A DNA stretch of 64,000 nucleotides, from assembly GCA_027490195.1 (NCBI GenBank), contig JAIXYN010000032.1:1-64000 (forward strand), read 5' to 3'. The notes under the pieces are model-generated. The model saw only the letters and a list, made by a program, of their open reading frames with translations. It did not search any database and was not told where the DNA came from. This DNA comes from Verrucomicrobiaceae bacterium. GTDB taxonomy: Bacteria > Verrucomicrobiota > Verrucomicrobiia > Verrucomicrobiales > Verrucomicrobiaceae. This document shows positions 4,932 to 61,405 of the stretch, one piece after another. The translations under genes were made by a program, and so were the position numbers. Numbering within the stretch: position 1 is the first letter of the stretch; every line of letters begins with the position of its first letter.

Positions 4932-4991
4932 GAAATGACGAATGACGAAAACAGAATGACGACTTCGGAGTGGTGGCTGCCTAGGCGCTGG

Positions 4992-12035: not shown

Positions 12036-12584
12036 TCATGGCGGAGCGGTGCGGAGAGCTGTGACAAGGTGCGGCCGGTAGGCCGTGAGGGTCAAGGAGG
12101 CCCCGGCAGCTTTCGTGGAAGGATTTTGCGAGATGTTGATGATGGCGGTACAAAGGGCGGTCTCCATGACGACGCCGTTGACGGTGGTCAGGCCGTTTTC
12201 AACCAGCACCGGATTGCTGAACATGGCCTGCTGTAGAATGGTATTTTGTGACAGAGACGGCATGAGCGCGGTGATCTGCACGGAGGACAGGCCGAGCTGC
12301 CAGAGCCGCACCGTGTTTTCCTGATAGTTGCGTGTGATGGCGACACGGTTGGCGAGCTCCTCCTGCAGCATGAGCGTGGAAGAGAGGCTGACCATGGCGG
12401 AGGTGCCGATGGAAAGGATGGAGGCGGCGGCGAGGACTTCGATGAGAGTGTAGGCTGAGGCCCTGCGGGCGGTTGGCGGTTGTTTGCGGTTGTTTGCAAT
12501 GGTTGGCGATGGTTTGCCAAACCACTGCAAACAATGGCCAACCATTGCAAACCATCGCAAACTCTGGATCCTCGTGTGCTTCAT
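12036..12584 (-). CDS. Prepilin-like (GspI-type) protein
   Basis: ASAYTLIEVLAAASILSIGTSAMVSLSS prepilin-type hydrophobic segment; leader encoded by the 10-bp repeat array. Confidence 0.75.
   Translation of the reverse strand: MKHTRIQSLRWFAMVGHCLQWFGKPSPTIANNRKQPPTARRASAYTLIEVLAAASILSIGTSAMVSLSSTLMLQEELANRVAITRNYQENTVRLWQLGLSSVQITALMPSLSQNTILQQAMFSNPVLVENGLTTVNGVVMETALCTAIINISQNPSTKAAGASLTLTAYRPHLVTALRTAPP
12471..12572. repeat. Inverted decamer array (ten units, exact 10-bp period)
   Basis: ggttggcggt tgtttgcggt tgtttgcaat ggttggcgat ggtttgccaa accactgcaa acaatggcca accattgcaa accatcgcaa ac. Confidence 0.9.
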
Positions 12585-30730: not shown

Positions 30731-31603
30731 ATGCTGAATGTTCCGAGCCGCCGCTGGTTGCTGCTCATGGTTCTGCTTTCGTCATTCGCCATTCGTCATT
30801 CGTCATTGGCTCAGCAGGGTCTCAAAATCCAACTCGTCTCTGAAGTCACCGCCATCGTTCCTGGCCAGCCCTTCACCGTCGGTCTCTGGCTGGAGCATGA
30901 TCGTGGCTCGCATACCTACTGGCGGTTTCCCGGCATCGTCGGGGTGCCGACGCAGATGAAGTGGAATTTGCCGCGTGGCTGGAAGGCGGGAGAGCTCATC
31001 TATCCTGAGCCTGAACGCACGCTCATGTTCAAGATCAAAGCGCAGGGGTTTGACCGCGATGTGATGCTGCGCACGGAGATCACGCCGCCGGCGAATTTGA
31101 AGGTGGGCGAATCCGTCACCCTCACCGGTCTCGCCTTATGGATGTGCTGCGGCAATTCCTGCCACCCCGGCTCCATGGGTCTCAGCCTGACTTTGCCAGT
31201 GGCTGAAACCACCGAACTGAATGCGAAATGGCACAAGCTGCTTGATGCTGAGCGAGCGCGTGCCGAACAGACCAGCGATGCCTGGACTGCCACCGCCAGC
31301 GAGAAAGGCGATACGATCACCCTGGTGCTCAAGCCTGCGACTGCGGAGGCCCGGCTCAGCAAAAACCAGCGGGAAGCTGATCAGATCATCGCCTTCACCG
31401 AGGATGGCTGGTTCGACAGCGACAAGCCGCAGACGGTTTTGCGCGATGCTGATGGCGCTCTGACGATCACCCTCATCAAGGCGGATGCTTACATGGGCAA
31501 CAAACCACCGAAGACGCTGCGTGTGATTTTGAGGAATGATGAGGGGTGGTTGCAGGGCGGAGGGCTGCGCTGCTTGCAGATGGCACCGGGGATTGATCGC
31601 TAG
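30731..31603 (+). CDS. DsbD N-terminal-domain-like secreted protein
   Basis: GLALWMCCGNSCHPGSMGLSLTLP; signal peptide partly encoded by CATTCGTCATT repeats. Confidence 0.7.
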   Translation: MLNVPSRRWLLLMVLLSSFAIRHSSLAQQGLKIQLVSEVTAIVPGQPFTVGLWLEHDRGSHTYWRFPGIVGVPTQMKWNLPRGWKAGELIYPEPERTLMFKIKAQGFDRDVMLRTEITPPANLKVGESVTLTGLALWMCCGNSCHPGSMGLSLTLPVAETTELNAKWHKLLDAERARAEQTSDAWTATASEKGDTITLVLKPATAEARLSKNQREADQIIAFTEDGWFDSDKPQTVLRDADGALTITLIKADAYMGNKPPKTLRVILRNDEGWLQGGGLRCLQMAPGIDR

Positions 31604-45375: not shown

Positions 45376-45520
45376 GTACGTTGTTCACGCTTCAGCGTGT
45401 TCCCCCCGCCGCGCACCGTACGTTGTTCACGCTTTAGCGTGTTTCCCACCGCCTGAACACGCTAAAGCGTGAACAACGTACTCAAACCCACCTGAACACG
45501 CTAAAGCGTGAACAACGTAC
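45376..45520. repeat. Four-unit palindromic repeat array (two forward, two inverted)
   Basis: gtacgttgttcacgctttagcgtgtt at 45376 and 45418; reverse complement at 45456 and 45495. Confidence 0.95.
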
Positions 45521-48500
45521 TCAAACCCGCGCCTTCAGCGCCTTCTCCGCATCCTCCAGCTCGGGTATCCGCCGCCCATAGCCGCATGCCACGATCAGCT
45601 TCCGCGCCTCCGCCAGATCCTTCTCCGGCGACTCCCACGGATACTTCACCTCTGGACCGTTGACTCCTTGACCCGTCTTGACGGCGATTCCGAACAAGCG
45701 ACAGCGCGTGAGCAAAATGTCCGCCATGAACAGCCGCATCGGCCCGCGCTCGGCGATTTCCCAGGCTTCGTCCAGGTCGCCCTGCGCGCTGTCGGGGCCG
45801 GCTTGCTCGGAAGTCAGTGCCCCGGTGAGACTCCGCTGCCAGGCGCGGGTGAGGAGGCCGAGGACGAGTGGGTCTTGCTCGCCAGCGCGGCGGAGGCCGG
45901 AGACGGCGGCGTCAATGTCGAATGACGAATGACGAATGTCGAAGTTCCCGAGGATCGCCTCGTAGAGCGCGGCGCGGCCCAGGGTGAGGTGGTCGAGGGC
46001 GATGCTGAGGAGCCAGTTGTTTTGCTCGGCAATCTTGAGCGCCTTCGCCGCGCGCTCGGAGACGGCGCGGAGCTTGGTAGCCAGATCGCTATCGGTGGGC
46101 GCGACAGCGTCCTGGAGTGCGGTGGCAGAGCCCTGAAGGGGCGGCGACACCGCTTTCGCCGGAGCCGTTGACTCGGTGCCATGACCTGCCGCCGAGACAC
46201 CTCCGGCATCGGGATGGGGTTCCTCAATTTCACTCGGCCTAGCGAAAGCGGTGTCGCCGATGCCTGGGTGGCCCCTGGCATCTCTGCCACCGCATTCGCT
46301 TCGCGGCTGCGCAGCCAAGACGCTTCGCGACATTCGCAGCATGACTTGCCACGCGGCACGCTCCGCCTCCGCCAGGAGCAGGTCGCAATAATTGAAGCCT
46401 TGAAGCGAATACAGCAGCGGGTAGTCGGGCTGGCGCTCGGCCTGCATCTGCTCGGCCTCGCGGAAGCGCGCCTCCGCCTCGGCCCGGCGGCCCGCCTGGT
46501 GCAGGGCGTCGGCATGGGTCGTGCGCTTGCTATACCGCTGAAACGAATCGCCGCTGCGGTCGGCATAGGTCACGGACTCCTCGGCGTCCCCCATCGCCCC
46601 GGCCACCTCGCCCAGCGTCAGATCCAGCTCGCTCAGGTTGCTGGCATGGATGGCGGCCTGTTTCCAATTCTCCTGCTTGACGCACATATCCAGTCCAGCC
46701 CGCATCGGTTCGGTGGCTTCTTTCAATCGCCCAGCAGCTCGGAGGCAGAAGGCAGCACCTTGAAACAACCATGCAATATCCGCCGCAGTCACAGTCTCGA
46801 CAGGTTTGCTCCATGGCTTCTGAAAGAAGCACGCGAAAGCTCCGAGGTGTGCCCCGGACATCCCTAGCTTGTTAATGCTGTAAGCTTGGCGTCTGTCGAT
46901 GCGAGCAAACAATACCTGGTCCAATGCCTCCTGCTGCAAGCCCGCCTGGCAGCCGTGGGCCACGGCTTGATAGAGCGGTTGGAGGGCTTCGAGCGTGGGC
47001 TCGTCGCCTTCCTGCGTGCTCTCGCAGAGGTGTTCGTAGAGCCGACGGTGGGCTTCGCGCCAGGCAGAGTAGCTATCTCGCTCCGCGAGATGATCTGGCG
47101 GCTCCGCTGCGGCATGGCGCTTGGAATCATCGAGTGTCTTCTCATTGGCGGTAGCAGCAGGCTCCTCTCGCGGAGCGAGAGGGCTACTTTTCAGCCTTTC
47201 CGCGAAGTATTCGCGGATGAGCGGATGCGCGTCGAGGGAGGCCGGAAGTGGGAACGCGGCAGCCGGAACGGAAACGGTCTCCGGGCTGACGGAGAGCAGT
47301 TTTGCGGCGACCAGCGATTCGAGACTGCAATTCCAATCTTCCTCGGGCAGGCCGGTGAGCGGCTCGGTGAGGCCGGTGATGGCGGGGGCGGCGAGCAAGG
47401 CCGCGAGGCAATCGGCGGTGGCGGGCCGGTCAAAAAGGCCCATGAGGCGGAGGATGGCCAGTTCGCGGCGCGCCTCGTCGCTGCCGTCCTCCATCCACCG
47501 GGCGTAGGCGGCCATCGCGCGAAAGGCGTGGCCGTTGTCGGTCTTCTGGCTGGCCTTGGCGAAGGTCACGCGGTCGCGCTTGCGGATGTCGCCACCGAAC
47601 GCCTTCTTCAAAAACGAGCCCATGATGTGGAGCGTGAGCGCGTGGCCGTCCACGTCCTCGACGAGCTTTTCAAACTCGTTAACCCGCTCGCTATTCGCGT
47701 CGCCGTCGTGGAGCGGGAGGTTCCGGCGGTCGCTGCCGGTGACGCCGTGGGCTTTCAGCAACTGCACGCCCGCAGCCCGCGCCAGACGTGTGAGCTTTTC
47801 CTCCCGCACGGTGCGGCCAAGGAAGGAGCGCAGGTCAGGCAGCGCATAGCGGGTGGTGACGACGCACAGGCCGTGGCTGGTGGCGGCCAGTCCTTTGAGC
47901 AGCGCGCTCAGTCCCTGGTCCTTGAGTTCGCCGGGCGTGGGCGAGGTGGGCGCGTATTGCAGCGGCTCGAGGCCGTCGAGGATGAGCAGCGCGCGCCGTT
48001 CGCCGACGAGCTGGGCCATTCGCCGGCCCTTCTCGAACGCGCCCTGCGCGCTGCCCGCCATGGCATCATCGCCAAAGAAGGCGAGGGCCTCGGCGATAAA
48101 CAAGTCGGACGAAACGGCGGTCTGCTCGCGCGTGCCCTGGCTGTAGAAGGACCACGCAAAGACGGCGTCGCAGCCGGGCCAGCTGTCATGGGCCAAGCTC
48201 GCAGCCCACTTGGCTACCAGGGACGTTTTTCCTTCGCCACCCAAGGCCACGAAGGTGAGCACGTACGGGCGGTTCGATTCTGCGCGCACGGCCTGACCCC
48301 AGGCATCGGTGAGAATCTTCGTCTCCGCTTCGCGCCCGATGAGTTCAGCCGGAGCGTATTTGCCGATGCGGGAGATGTCGATCCTGCGTGCCTGGCGAGT
48401 GCGGGGACGAAAGTCGATGACATCGCGGTCTGCAAAGATCGGAGGAACGGGGCAGTCCTCGATCCAGACGGGGATGATCTTCTTCGAAAGGCTGCGTGCG

Positions 48501-48733
48501 TATTCGACTTCGCGCTTCACCCAATCCGATGTGTTGGAGGAGGCAGTGATGACAACGAACAGTGTATCGGCTTTCGTTATGCCCTTCTCGATCTCCGGCC
48601 AGAGCTGCTCGTCTGGCTTGATGGCACTGGAGTCATTGAAAACATCATCGAAGCCAGCGGCACGTAGGAACGATTCCATTTCTGTGACGTAAGAGTCATC
48701 GACAGTGCTGTGGGAAACGAAAGCGCTACGCAT
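45521..48733 (-). CDS. TIR-STAND (NTPase)-TPR-like protein
   Basis: MRSAFVSHSTVDDSYVTEMESFLRAAGFDDVF...SLSKKIIPVWIEDC (TIR); FVALGGEGKTSLVAKWAA Walker A; RRALLILDGLEPLQ Walker B; TPR-like C-terminal half. Confidence 0.88.
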   Translation of the reverse strand: MRSAFVSHSTVDDSYVTEMESFLRAAGFDDVFNDSSAIKPDEQLWPEIEKGITKADTLFVVITASSNTSDWVKREVEYARSLSKKIIPVWIEDCPVPPIFADRDVIDFRPRTRQARRIDISRIGKYAPAELIGREAETKILTDAWGQAVRAESNRPYVLTFVALGGEGKTSLVAKWAASLAHDSWPGCDAVFAWSFYSQGTREQTAVSSDLFIAEALAFFGDDAMAGSAQGAFEKGRRMAQLVGERRALLILDGLEPLQYAPTSPTPGELKDQGLSALLKGLAATSHGLCVVTTRYALPDLRSFLGRTVREEKLTRLARAAGVQLLKAHGVTGSDRRNLPLHDGDANSERVNEFEKLVEDVDGHALTLHIMGSFLKKAFGGDIRKRDRVTFAKASQKTDNGHAFRAMAAYARWMEDGSDEARRELAILRLMGLFDRPATADCLAALLAAPAITGLTEPLTGLPEEDWNCSLESLVAAKLLSVSPETVSVPAAAFPLPASLDAHPLIREYFAERLKSSPLAPREEPAATANEKTLDDSKRHAAAEPPDHLAERDSYSAWREAHRRLYEHLCESTQEGDEPTLEALQPLYQAVAHGCQAGLQQEALDQVLFARIDRRQAYSINKLGMSGAHLGAFACFFQKPWSKPVETVTAADIAWLFQGAAFCLRAAGRLKEATEPMRAGLDMCVKQENWKQAAIHASNLSELDLTLGEVAGAMGDAEESVTYADRSGDSFQRYSKRTTHADALHQAGRRAEAEARFREAEQMQAERQPDYPLLYSLQGFNYCDLLLAEAERAAWQVMLRMSRSVLAAQPRSECGGRDARGHPGIGDTAFARPSEIEEPHPDAGGVSAAGHGTESTAPAKAVSPPLQGSATALQDAVAPTDSDLATKLRAVSERAAKALKIAEQNNWLLSIALDHLTLGRAALYEAILGNFDIRHSSFDIDAAVSGLRRAGEQDPLVLGLLTRAWQRSLTGALTSEQAGPDSAQGDLDEAWEIAERGPMRLFMADILLTRCRLFGIAVKTGQGVNGPEVKYPWESPEKDLAEARKLIVACGYGRRIPELEDAEKALKARV
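46115..46297. repeat. Inverted-repeat element inside the TIR-STAND coding region
   Basis: Arms gagtgcggtggcagag / ctctgccaccgcattc plus inner perfect ggcgacaccgctttcgc / gcgaaagcggtgtcgcc. Confidence 0.8.
47069..47187. repeat. Second inverted-repeat element inside the TIR-STAND coding region
   Basis: gtagctatctcgctccgcgaga / ctctcgcggagcgagagggctac; each arm itself palindromic. Confidence 0.75.
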
Positions 48734-48834
48734 GCGAATTTTGCCGTAAGGGTAGGTGCATGAAAGCAGCAGCACCTCAGAAGGCAAGGCATTATGAAAT
48801 GTTGCCGACCTCGCTTTTCAATGCCTTCTCGTTG

Positions 48835-58951: not shown

Positions 58952-61405
58952 ATGAAACCCGAACAAATCACCGCCTGGGCACTGGATGAAGCCAGCGCCG
59001 AAGAACGCCAGCAGCTTGAGGCGGCACTGCAAGAGAATCCGCAGGACAAAGAGAAGGCAGATGAAACCAAAGCCTTCTGCGACTTCCTGCTGAGCGAGCT
59101 GCGCGACGACTCCCTGGCGCTGACGGACAAGCAGCGCGAACGGCTCGTAGAGCAATCGTCTCGATTGCCCGCTGCAAGCGGGACGCTTGCACAACCGCCG
59201 GGAGAGCGTGCGTCTGGGGCCAGCAGGAAGCCCGGCAAAACCACCCGCTGGAACATCGGCGTCATCGTCCGCCTCTCCCTGGCCGCGTGCGCGGTGCTGG
59301 GCGGATTTTGGACGTGGCAGGCGTACTCGGGAAAACACACTGAAGAGCATGCCCTCGCGGCCGTGGCGGAGAAGCCCGGCTTCAAAGTGCAACTCGCACC
59401 GAAGACACTGGCCGACAAGAAAGCCGGGCAGGGGCCTGACACCCGGATGCTGACCGCCGCGCCAGCGAAGCCTGTGATCGTGGCGGAGCAGCCTGCGGCG
59501 AAACCGCTTTCGCCCATGCCGACATCCGAACCTGTGTCCGCAGTGGCTGCGATGGTCGTGAACAAGAACCAGCGTGCCATGAGCCCCGGCGATGTGGAGC
59601 GGCTGAAACGGGCGCAGGATGAGAGCGCGTATGGCTTACCGCAGGTGGCCGCCGCTGCAACGGGCAATGCAGGCGCAGCGCCTATGGTCCTGAGGGAAGG
59701 CAACCAATCCGCGACCTTCACCACAAGCAGACCGGGGATGCTGCAACTCCAGGCTGGGGCGGCTGAGGGTGGCAAGGCGAGCACGGCAGCCTATGACCCG
59801 CAACGGTCAAAGATGCTGGCTCAAGTAGATCAATGGGAAAACGCGTCGGTTCAGCCGGGTCAGGTCGTCCTGGGCAAGGATGTGAAGAATGATGACTTCT
59901 ATTTCGGAAACACTGCCATGCGTGAAGATCGCAAGCCCGAGCCGCAGACCCAGCTGGGCACCGGCGAATCCTACACCCGCATCATCGAAAACGAACTCAA
60001 GGACGTGGCGCGTGAGCCCCTTTCCACGCTCTCCATCGATGTGGACACCGCCTCCTATGCAAACGTGCGGCGCTTCCTGAACCAGAACATGATCCCGCCG
60101 CCGGATGCGGTGCGCATTGAGGAGCTGGTGAATTATTTCCCCACCGCCGAAGAAGGCCCCGCGCATGAGGCGAAGGAACCCTTCGGCGTGCGCGTGGAGC
60201 TGGCACCCTGCCCCTGGCAGCCGGTTCACCGCCTCGCACGCATCGCCATCAAAGGCCGTGAGATGGACAAGAACCGCAAGGCAAGCAACCTCGTCTTCCT
60301 GGTGGATGTCTCGGGCTCGATGGGCGAGCCAAACAAACTGCCGCTGGTGCAGCAGTCTCTGCGCATGCTCACGGAGCAGCTCGGGGAAGGGGACCGCGTG
60401 ACGATGGTGGTCTATGCCGGCAGCAGCGGCGTGGTGCTGCCACCGACGAGTGGCGAGAAGAAAGAAGAGATCCTGGCGGCCATCGGCCGACTGAGCGCAG
60501 GCGGCAGCACGCATGGCAGCGAGGGCATCAAGCTCGCCTATGAGCAGGCGGTGGCGGGCTTCATCAAAGGCGGCGTGAACCGCGTGATCCTCTGCACGGA
60601 CGGCGACTTCAATGTGGGCGTGAGCTCGCCGGAGGAGCTGGAAAAACTCATCAAGCACAAGGCCAAGAGCGGTGTCTTTCTCAGCGTGCTGGGCTTTGGC
60701 AGCGGAAACTTGAAGGACCGCACCATGGAAACCCTGGCCGACAAAGGCAACGGCAACTACGCCTACATCGACAGCCTCAGCGAAGCGCGCAAAGTGCTGG
60801 TGGAGCAGATGAGCGGCACGCTGGTGACCATCGCCAAAGACGTGAAAATCCAGGTGGAGTTCAATCCCGCCGCCGTGCGCAGCTACCGCCTCATCGGTTA
60901 TGAAAACCGCCTGCTGGCCAAGGAAGATTTTAACGATGACACGAAGGACGCCGGCGAGATCGGCGCAGGCCACAGCGTGGTGGCCCTGTATGAGATCGTC
61001 CCTGCGAATCTGCCCCCCGGTGCCGAGCCCCGCCCGCTGGTGGACAACTTGAAGTATCAAGCCCCCGCCATCGCTTCCGCTCAGCTCGCCGCCGCCGCGA
61101 AAACTGGCGAGATGATGACCGTGAAGCTGCGCTACAAGGAACCCGAGAGCGATCTGAGCAAGCTGATCGAAGTGCCCACCAAAGACGAAGGCAAGACCCT
61201 GACCGCGAGCAGCGAAGAGTACAAATTCAGCGCCGCCGTCGCAGGCTTCGGCCTCCTGCTGCGCGACTCCAGTTACAAAGGCACCCTGAGCTGGGAAACC
61301 GTGCGCCGCCTGGCACTGGATGGCAAAGGCGCCGACAAGCTGGGGTATCGTGGCGAGTTTCTCCAGCTCATCGACAAAGCACGTGGGCTGAAGGAAACGA
61401 AGTAG
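58952..61405 (+). CDS. VWA-domain protein (YfbK-like) with anti-sigma-like N-terminus
   Basis: LVFLVDVSGSMGEPNKLPLVQQSLRML MIDAS; downstream of ECF sigma gene. Confidence 0.92.
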   Translation: MKPEQITAWALDEASAEERQQLEAALQENPQDKEKADETKAFCDFLLSELRDDSLALTDKQRERLVEQSSRLPAASGTLAQPPGERASGASRKPGKTTRWNIGVIVRLSLAACAVLGGFWTWQAYSGKHTEEHALAAVAEKPGFKVQLAPKTLADKKAGQGPDTRMLTAAPAKPVIVAEQPAAKPLSPMPTSEPVSAVAAMVVNKNQRAMSPGDVERLKRAQDESAYGLPQVAAAATGNAGAAPMVLREGNQSATFTTSRPGMLQLQAGAAEGGKASTAAYDPQRSKMLAQVDQWENASVQPGQVVLGKDVKNDDFYFGNTAMREDRKPEPQTQLGTGESYTRIIENELKDVAREPLSTLSIDVDTASYANVRRFLNQNMIPPPDAVRIEELVNYFPTAEEGPAHEAKEPFGVRVELAPCPWQPVHRLARIAIKGREMDKNRKASNLVFLVDVSGSMGEPNKLPLVQQSLRMLTEQLGEGDRVTMVVYAGSSGVVLPPTSGEKKEEILAAIGRLSAGGSTHGSEGIKLAYEQAVAGFIKGGVNRVILCTDGDFNVGVSSPEELEKLIKHKAKSGVFLSVLGFGSGNLKDRTMETLADKGNGNYAYIDSLSEARKVLVEQMSGTLVTIAKDVKIQVEFNPAAVRSYRLIGYENRLLAKEDFNDDTKDAGEIGAGHSVVALYEIVPANLPPGAEPRPLVDNLKYQAPAIASAQLAAAAKTGEMMTVKLRYKEPESDLSKLIEVPTKDEGKTLTASSEEYKFSAAVAGFGLLLRDSSYKGTLSWETVRRLALDGKGADKLGYRGEFLQLIDKARGLKETK

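What the first reader, a model, noticed from the sequence alone, without database searches (positions are those of the whole stretch)
46115..46297. 183-bp inverted-repeat element in frame inside the TIR-STAND gene
Arms gagtgcggtggcagag and ctctgccaccgcattc, with an inner perfect 17-bp pair (ggcgacaccgctttcgc / gcgaaagcggtgtcgcc), lie inside the TPR region without breaking the frame. The encoded segment (ECGGRDARGHPGIGDTAFARPSEIEEPHPDAGGVSAAGHGTESTAPAKAVSPPLQGSATAL) is low-complexity and unlike the surrounding helical repeats. It looks like a palindromic repeat domesticated as a protein insert, as known for Rickettsia palindromic elements. Span 183 bp = 61 codons.
Basis: partly seen in the sequence, partly recalled or inferred. 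Interest (0 to 1): 0.75.

Follow-up and report, generated by a model that had tools for sequence, protein, structure and literature searches.

The report
In-frame mobile palindrome in defence gene
A ~230-bp copy of a repeat that normally lies between genes has landed inside a bacterial TIR-STAND (immune-type) gene without breaking it, at a floppy joint of the protein where related genes in other bacteria have repeatedly taken up different palindromic repeats.

Summary
The inverted repeat is real. The inner arms are 18 nt and perfect, the outer arms 16 nt with one mismatch, and no shuffle comes close. It consists of two ~60-bp palindromic units facing each other, a REPIN-like pair. Related copies lie across the host genome and in about two thirds of congeners, almost all between genes.

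In the protein it fills a linker between two TPR-region helices, which AlphaFold2 leaves disordered. Three orthologs have only a 15-16 aa linker there. Eight other orthologs carry different inverted-repeat inserts in the same linker; most match dispersed repeats in their own or another genome. The nearest ortholog (about 85% identical) carries a different one. The same gene holds a second in-frame pair (47068-47188), shared with that ortholog, and a third repeat cluster abuts its stop codon.

In-frame REP pairs in genes are known (PMC3733652; Rickettsia RPEs), so this is a new member of a known kind. 'Domesticated' is not shown; tolerated mobile DNA is likelier. Repeated colonisation of one protein linker by unrelated repeat families is the noteworthy part.

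The parts
46101..46330 (-). REPIN-like element: two inverted ~60-bp REP units with a ~82-bp spacer, encoding about residues 820-896
   Evidence: dispersed copies, alignment of units, whole span folds as one arm-paired structure, z -8.4 as DNA
46101..46160 (+). left REP unit (gcgacagcgtcctgGAGTGCGGTGGCAGAG-ccctgaagggg-CGGCGACACCGCTTTCGCc), variant short hairpin
46238..46330 (-). right REP unit (outer stem, ATGCC..GGCAT inner hairpin), with an extra ~18-nt piece near its outer end
46142..46159 (+). inner arm, left (18 nt, perfect)
46242..46259 (+). inner arm, right (18 nt, perfect)
46073..46345 (-). hypervariable linker between two TPR-region helices (residues 815-905); 15-16 aa long in three orthologs without an element
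47068..47188 (-). second in-frame REPIN-like pair, GTAG-tagged type (aGTAGCCCTCTCGCTCCGCGAGAGG...CTCGCGGAGCGAGATAGCTACt), residues ~534-574; also in ortholog L031
45418..45520 (.). third palindromic repeat cluster (26-nt perfect inverted arms, right arm duplicated in tandem) abutting the stop codon of the gene
45521..48787 (-). TIR-STAND host gene: TIR_2, NACHT-like ATPase (sub-threshold), TPR-like helical C-terminus, 1088 aa

Best explanation
The 46101-46330 element is a miniature mobile repeat of the REPIN kind: two palindromic REP units in inverted orientation, belonging to a family endemic to this bacterial genus. Shown: the family is dispersed, palindromic with compensatory changes, mostly paired, and mostly outside long open frames. 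It lies in frame in a linker of a TIR-STAND gene, where the nearest ortholog carries a different repeat and three orthologs carry only a short loop. Inferred: it was copied into the linker after the gene reached this genus, probably by a Y1/RAYT-type transposase acting on single-stranded hairpin DNA. It survived because the linker tolerates length and the element happened to be open in the gene's frame, as about half of all element frames are. It is translated as a ~76-residue disordered loop, most likely neutral or nearly so. The same tolerance explains why this linker and one near residues 530-577 have taken up unrelated REP families repeatedly in other bacteria.
For: Inverted repeat beyond chance. 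Nine further places in the own genome at E<=1e-5 and more weak ones; copies in 22 of 34 congeners and in none of 21 genomes of other families of the order. Mostly inverted (+-) pairs, spacing 41-172 bp. Hairpin stems 96.2% paired against 88.6% in shuffles, 18 cells changed on both sides against 5.7, two pairs with compensatory changes. Extragenic preference: 3 of 34 copies inside a long open frame against 255 of 526 random positions. Linkers of 15-16 aa in L042, L045, L046; the window's linker is 91 aa, of which ~77 are element. Nearest ortholog L031 (87.7-90.5% identical DNA on both sides) has a different palindromic pair there. Inverted repeats in the same linker in L037, L038, L041, L043, L076, L079, L085. 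Supported sister pairs differ in occupancy: L037 vs L046, L041 vs L045, window vs L031. pLDDT<50 at 824-893 and 535-567, matching the two inserts. dN/dS 0.43 outside the inserts, so the gene looks maintained. Y1_Tnp genes exist in the genome.
Against: No cognate transposase was pinned down: the focal family lies near only 2 of 42 Y1_Tnp loci, at ~0.25 and ~1 kb. No target-site duplication could be read, because no closely related empty site was found. The family is of modest copy number. Expression and translation are not shown. For several orthologs the repeat's dispersal in its own genome is not shown (L038, L041, L079), thin (L043) or rests on short matches (L031).
Confidence: 0.85

Rival explanations
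1. Exaptation: the element was kept because the longer, charged, disordered linker or its variability helps the sensor (for example retuning TPR spacing or diversifying a phage-recognition or autoinhibition surface), so the linkers work as evolvable slots filled by REPINs.
For: Two linkers account for 13 of 18 inverted repeats found in the orthologs (L031's focal repeat included), and the two in this gene are the only strong inverted repeats inside a convincing gene in the 64-kb window. Defence sensors are expected to diversify.
Against: Disordered prediction; the shared second insert shows omega 1.76 on only 40 codons, consistent with no constraint; element-free orthologs persist beside element-bearing sisters. 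Tolerance of loops explains the clustering without benefit.
Confidence: 0.12
2. The gene is a decaying or silenced pseudogene in which insertions simply accumulate.
For: Two internal insertions and a third repeat cluster at the stop codon.
Against: 1088-aa frame intact through both insertions; dN/dS 0.43 against the nearest ortholog outside the inserts; inserts confined to linkers.
Confidence: 0.06
3. The element acts at the nucleic-acid level (mRNA hairpin pausing ribosomes, or a gyrase/IHF-type site as for BIMEs) and the peptide is incidental.
For: The transcript strand folds far better than shuffles, RNA z -7.6; REPs are known to affect mRNA stability (general knowledge).
Against: Any REPIN would fold like this; no known Rfam family matches; the position follows protein linkers, not mRNA landmarks.
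Confidence: 0.06
4. One ancient insertion at this linker that diverged beyond recognition in each lineage, rather than repeated insertions.
For: Window, L043 and L041 units share a loose pattern (TTGGAgTGCgGyg...CrcCGCTTT).
Against: L031, sister to the window with ~88-90% identical flanks, holds an unrelated repeat; L037 and L085 repeats match families in their own genomes; short-linker orthologs are sisters to repeat-bearing ones.
Confidence: 0.07

Closest known systems
Intragenic GTAG- and CGTC-tagged REP dimers (PMC3733652, BMC Genomics 2013), notably Opitutus terrae uvrA genes
   Same: Paired palindromic repeats, mostly intergenic, found in frame inside genes, sometimes two per gene, including in O. 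terrae (a verrucomicrobium, own knowledge); the paper also notes different REPs at about the same site of recB in two Xanthomonas species.
   Different: The focal units are longer (~60 bp), without a terminal GTAG; the host gene is a TIR-STAND defence-type gene; one linker holds several unrelated families in nine genes rather than in one gene pair.
REPINs with RAYT transposases (Bertels and Rainey 2011, PMC3116915)
   Same: Two REP hairpins in inverted orientation forming one dispersed miniature unit.
   Different: Described there as extragenic; the cognate RAYT for the focal family is not identified here.
Rickettsia palindromic elements (Ogata 2000, 2002; summarised in PMC10969869)
   Same: ~150-bp palindromes inserted in frame in protein genes, compatible with folding.
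   Different: RPEs carry a conserved coding peptide and are often intragenic; this family is almost always extragenic, with open frames varying between copies.
Bacterial TIR-STAND/NLR-like defence proteins (PADLOC TIR-NLR, Thoeris TIR)
   Same: TIR_2 domain, ATPase region, helical repeats.
   Different: Only TIR matches are strong; the specific system is not assigned, and ATPase hits fall below Pfam's cut-off.

Membership tests
REPIN (inverted REP pair) | two REP units in inverted orientation | tested here: met
   mostly +- pairs; window copy +- with 82-bp spacer
REPIN (inverted REP pair) | each REP is an imperfect palindrome kept by compensatory change | tested here: met
   96.2% paired, 18 double-changed cells against 5.7 in shuffles
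REPIN (inverted REP pair) | dispersed in the genome and predominantly extragenic | tested here: met
   (3/34 against 255/526 random); copy number only moderate
REPIN (inverted REP pair) | REP flanks a dedicated RAYT (Y1) transposase gene | tested here: inconclusive
   Y1_Tnp genes present but only 2 of 42 loci have the focal REP nearby, at ~0.25 and ~1 kb
REPIN (inverted REP pair) | mobility | not testable with these tools
   needs population sequencing or a transposition assay
GTAG-tagged REP | terminal GTAG tetranucleotide | tested here: not met
   focal unit ends gcgacagcgtcttgg; no GTAG. Met instead by the second element near 47188
Rickettsia palindromic element (RPE) | conserved coding frame/peptide and frequent intragenic location | tested here: not met
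   extragenic copies, open frames vary (0-6 of 6)
MITE of a DDE transposase | terminal inverted repeats with target-site duplication | tested here: inconclusive
   terminal inverted repeats present; no target duplication could be read because no close empty site was found
TIR-STAND gene | TIR domain | tested here: met
   PF13676, E 4.5e-19
TIR-STAND gene | STAND/NACHT ATPase and sensor repeats | tested here: inconclusive
   NACHT 22.4 bits against cut-off 26.7, TPR_12 19.9 against 30.1; helical repeats in the model

The most novel reading that the evidence does not exclude
Specific inter-repeat linkers of TIR-STAND proteins are recurrent landing slots for unrelated REPIN families across phyla. 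Because the genes move between bacteria, embedded elements record where a defence gene has lived (its host's resident repeats) and may supply sensor diversity. L038 and L041 carry elements not found elsewhere in their own genomes but present in other genomes, and the second element here is rare in its host.
Probability: 0.35. Interest if true: 0.7.

Novelty: new member of a known kind. Interest (0 to 1): 0.5.

Why it matters
It extends in-frame palindromic insertions to immune-type genes of Verrucomicrobiota and shows one protein linker taken up by several unrelated repeat families. That gives a natural series for testing how mobile repeats become protein sequence, whether disordered linkers of defence sensors are simply tolerant or exploited, and whether embedded repeats can trace the travels of defence genes.

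Tried and rejected
Plasmid collection search gave no match. Rfam gave nothing over the gene. A cognate RAYT next to the focal REP was sought in 42 Y1_Tnp loci and not convincingly found. 'One conserved peptide' was rejected: open frames vary between copies. The '183 bp = 61 codons, clean gap' reading was rejected in favour of ~230 bp in a variable linker. A phylum-wide search for more orthologs added none. L145's apparently intragenic copy was discounted, because it lies upstream of a likely signal-peptide start. Papers on REPINs in Verrucomicrobia: none relevant in the held library.

Full report
What is there. The window's minus-strand ORF 45521-48787 (1088 aa) encodes a protein with a TIR_2 domain (E 4.5e-19), a sub-threshold NACHT/AAA ATPase region and TPR-like helices. 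The score of 18 compares with a mean of 8.0 and a maximum of 11 in 100 shuffles.

It is a dispersed repeat, and larger than reported. A blastn search of the own genome finds nine other places at E<=1e-5 and further weak ones; 22 of 34 congeneric genomes also have copies, and none of the 21 genomes of other families does. Reading the copies shows a common longer end (gcgacagcgtcttggagtgcggtgg), and the window copy carries it on both sides, the right one with ~18 extra nt. The 46101-46330 span folds with its two ends paired, z -8.4 as DNA. Units occur mostly as inverted pairs with spacings of 41-172 bp. In 27 aligned units two helices are 96.2% paired, with compensatory changes at two pairs (18 cells against 5.7 shuffled; slid controls 18-61% paired). 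This is the anatomy of a REPIN.

It normally avoids genes. Of 34 copies examined (15 own genome, 19 congeners), 3 lie within a long open frame against 255 of 526 random positions of the same loci. One of the three (L145) is probably upstream of the real start, and one (L129) is a second true in-frame case, in a Laminin_G/DUF7133 protein. In the 64-kb window the only strong inverted repeats inside a convincing gene are the two in this TIR-STAND gene (the third ORF listed there is a 103-codon frame).

The insertion site. Aligned orthologs show conserved helices ending in ...YCDLLLAEAERAAWQ and resuming at (C/L)RAVSERAAQTLKW, with a hypervariable linker between. In L042, L045 and L046 the linker is 15-16 aa; in the window it is 91 aa, of which the element encodes ~77, leaving ~14. 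AlphaFold2 (14-sequence alignment, mean pLDDT 75) leaves 824-893 below 50, between helices 794-825 and 899-923.

The same linker has been filled repeatedly. Inverted repeats occupy it in the window, L031, L037, L038, L041, L043, L076, L085 and L079. The arms differ: the window GGAGTGCGGTGG...; L031 AGTAGTCCAGGGCTTTAGC...; L037 CAAGGAGCGGCGACATTCC...; L038 ATAGTCGCCTTTCGCT; L041 TTGGACTGCAGCAGG...; L043 TTTGGAGTGCGGTGACTTG...; L076/L085 GTAGCCATCACGCTCCGCG; L079 TGGAGGGCGTCGCT. Window, L041 and L043 share a loose pattern, so the number of unrelated families is nearer six than nine. Dispersal tests: L037's repeat has dozens of relatives in its own genome, many nearly full-length; L043's is rich in L032's genome and present in its own; L085's units recur in its own and other genomes; L038's recur many times in L041's genome; L041's recur in G133 and G292 but were not found elsewhere in its own genome. 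L031's ends match places in its own genome and in G000, on short matches. L079's has no second copy. Across 25 genes (79.7 kb), 17 inverted repeats of score >=13 were found against 2 in 50 codon-shuffled genes. Adding L031's focal repeat, 9 of 18 lie in this linker and 4 near residues 530-577.

Independence of the insertions. On a tree built without the linkers, supported sisters differ: window (one repeat) with L031 (another), 96/100; L037 (repeat) with L046 (short), 100/99; L041 (repeat) with L045 (short), 99/94. The gene is sporadic (5 of 48 genomes of the genus sample) and its tree mixes phyla, which suggests horizontal movement (inference). The focal family was found only in this genus among the relatives searched, so this element probably arrived after the gene did (inference).

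A second and a third repeat. At 47068-47188 the gene holds another in-frame pair, GTAG-tagged, shared with L031 and rare in the own genome. Immediately after the stop codon lies a palindromic cluster, 45418-45520. dN/dS between window and L031 is 0.43 outside the inserts and 1.76 in the shared second insert, the latter on only 40 codons.

Mechanism. Shown: dispersal, palindromy with compensatory change, pairing, extragenic preference, in-frame location in a linker predicted disordered, variable occupancy among orthologs. Inferred: mobilisation by a Y1/RAYT-type enzyme (Y1_Tnp genes are present, but none is convincingly linked to this family), chance retention because about half of element frames are open (62 of 126), and near-neutral translation. 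No function of the insert is shown.

Known versus new. In-frame REP dimers in genes, including two uvrA genes of Opitutus terrae with two inserts each, and different REPs at about the same site of recB in two Xanthomonas species, are described in PMC3733652. Rickettsia palindromic elements are the classic case (PMC10969869). This is therefore a new member of a known kind. The multi-phylum, multi-family reuse of one linker in a defence-type gene goes beyond the examples read here; whether it has been noted elsewhere could not be checked beyond the held library.

Noticed in passing
47068-47188: Second in-frame inverted repeat pair (GTAG-tagged REP type) in the same gene, shared with ortholog L031 and rare in the own genome.
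   Followed up: yes
45418-45520: Perfect 26-nt inverted pair with a further tandem copy of the right arm, abutting the gene's stop codon.
   Followed up: partly
45913-45944: Tandem GAATGAC-type repeat encoding FDIRHSSFDID in another linker of the same protein; similar repeats at 4933, 30777-30808 and 44408 (10 matches against 0.11 expected).
   Followed up: partly
12482-12562: Long 36-nt hairpin (GTTTGCGGTTGTTTGCAATGG...), outside the selected ORFs.
   Followed up: no
59495-59514: Near-perfect palindrome GGCGAAACCGCTTTCGCC, resembling the inner arm of the focal repeat.
   Followed up: no
L129:1554-1620: Another in-frame copy of the focal REP, in a Laminin_G/DUF7133 protein of a congener, in a linker between the two domains.
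   Followed up: partly
L096-L125, 3' flanks of Y1_Tnp genes: Many Y1_Tnp genes of the genus are followed directly by hairpin-like repeats of their own, differing from gene to gene (seen by eye).
   Followed up: no
L038 and L041 focal linkers: Each carries a repeat not found elsewhere in its own genome but present in other genomes, as expected if the gene was transferred with its insert.
   Followed up: partly
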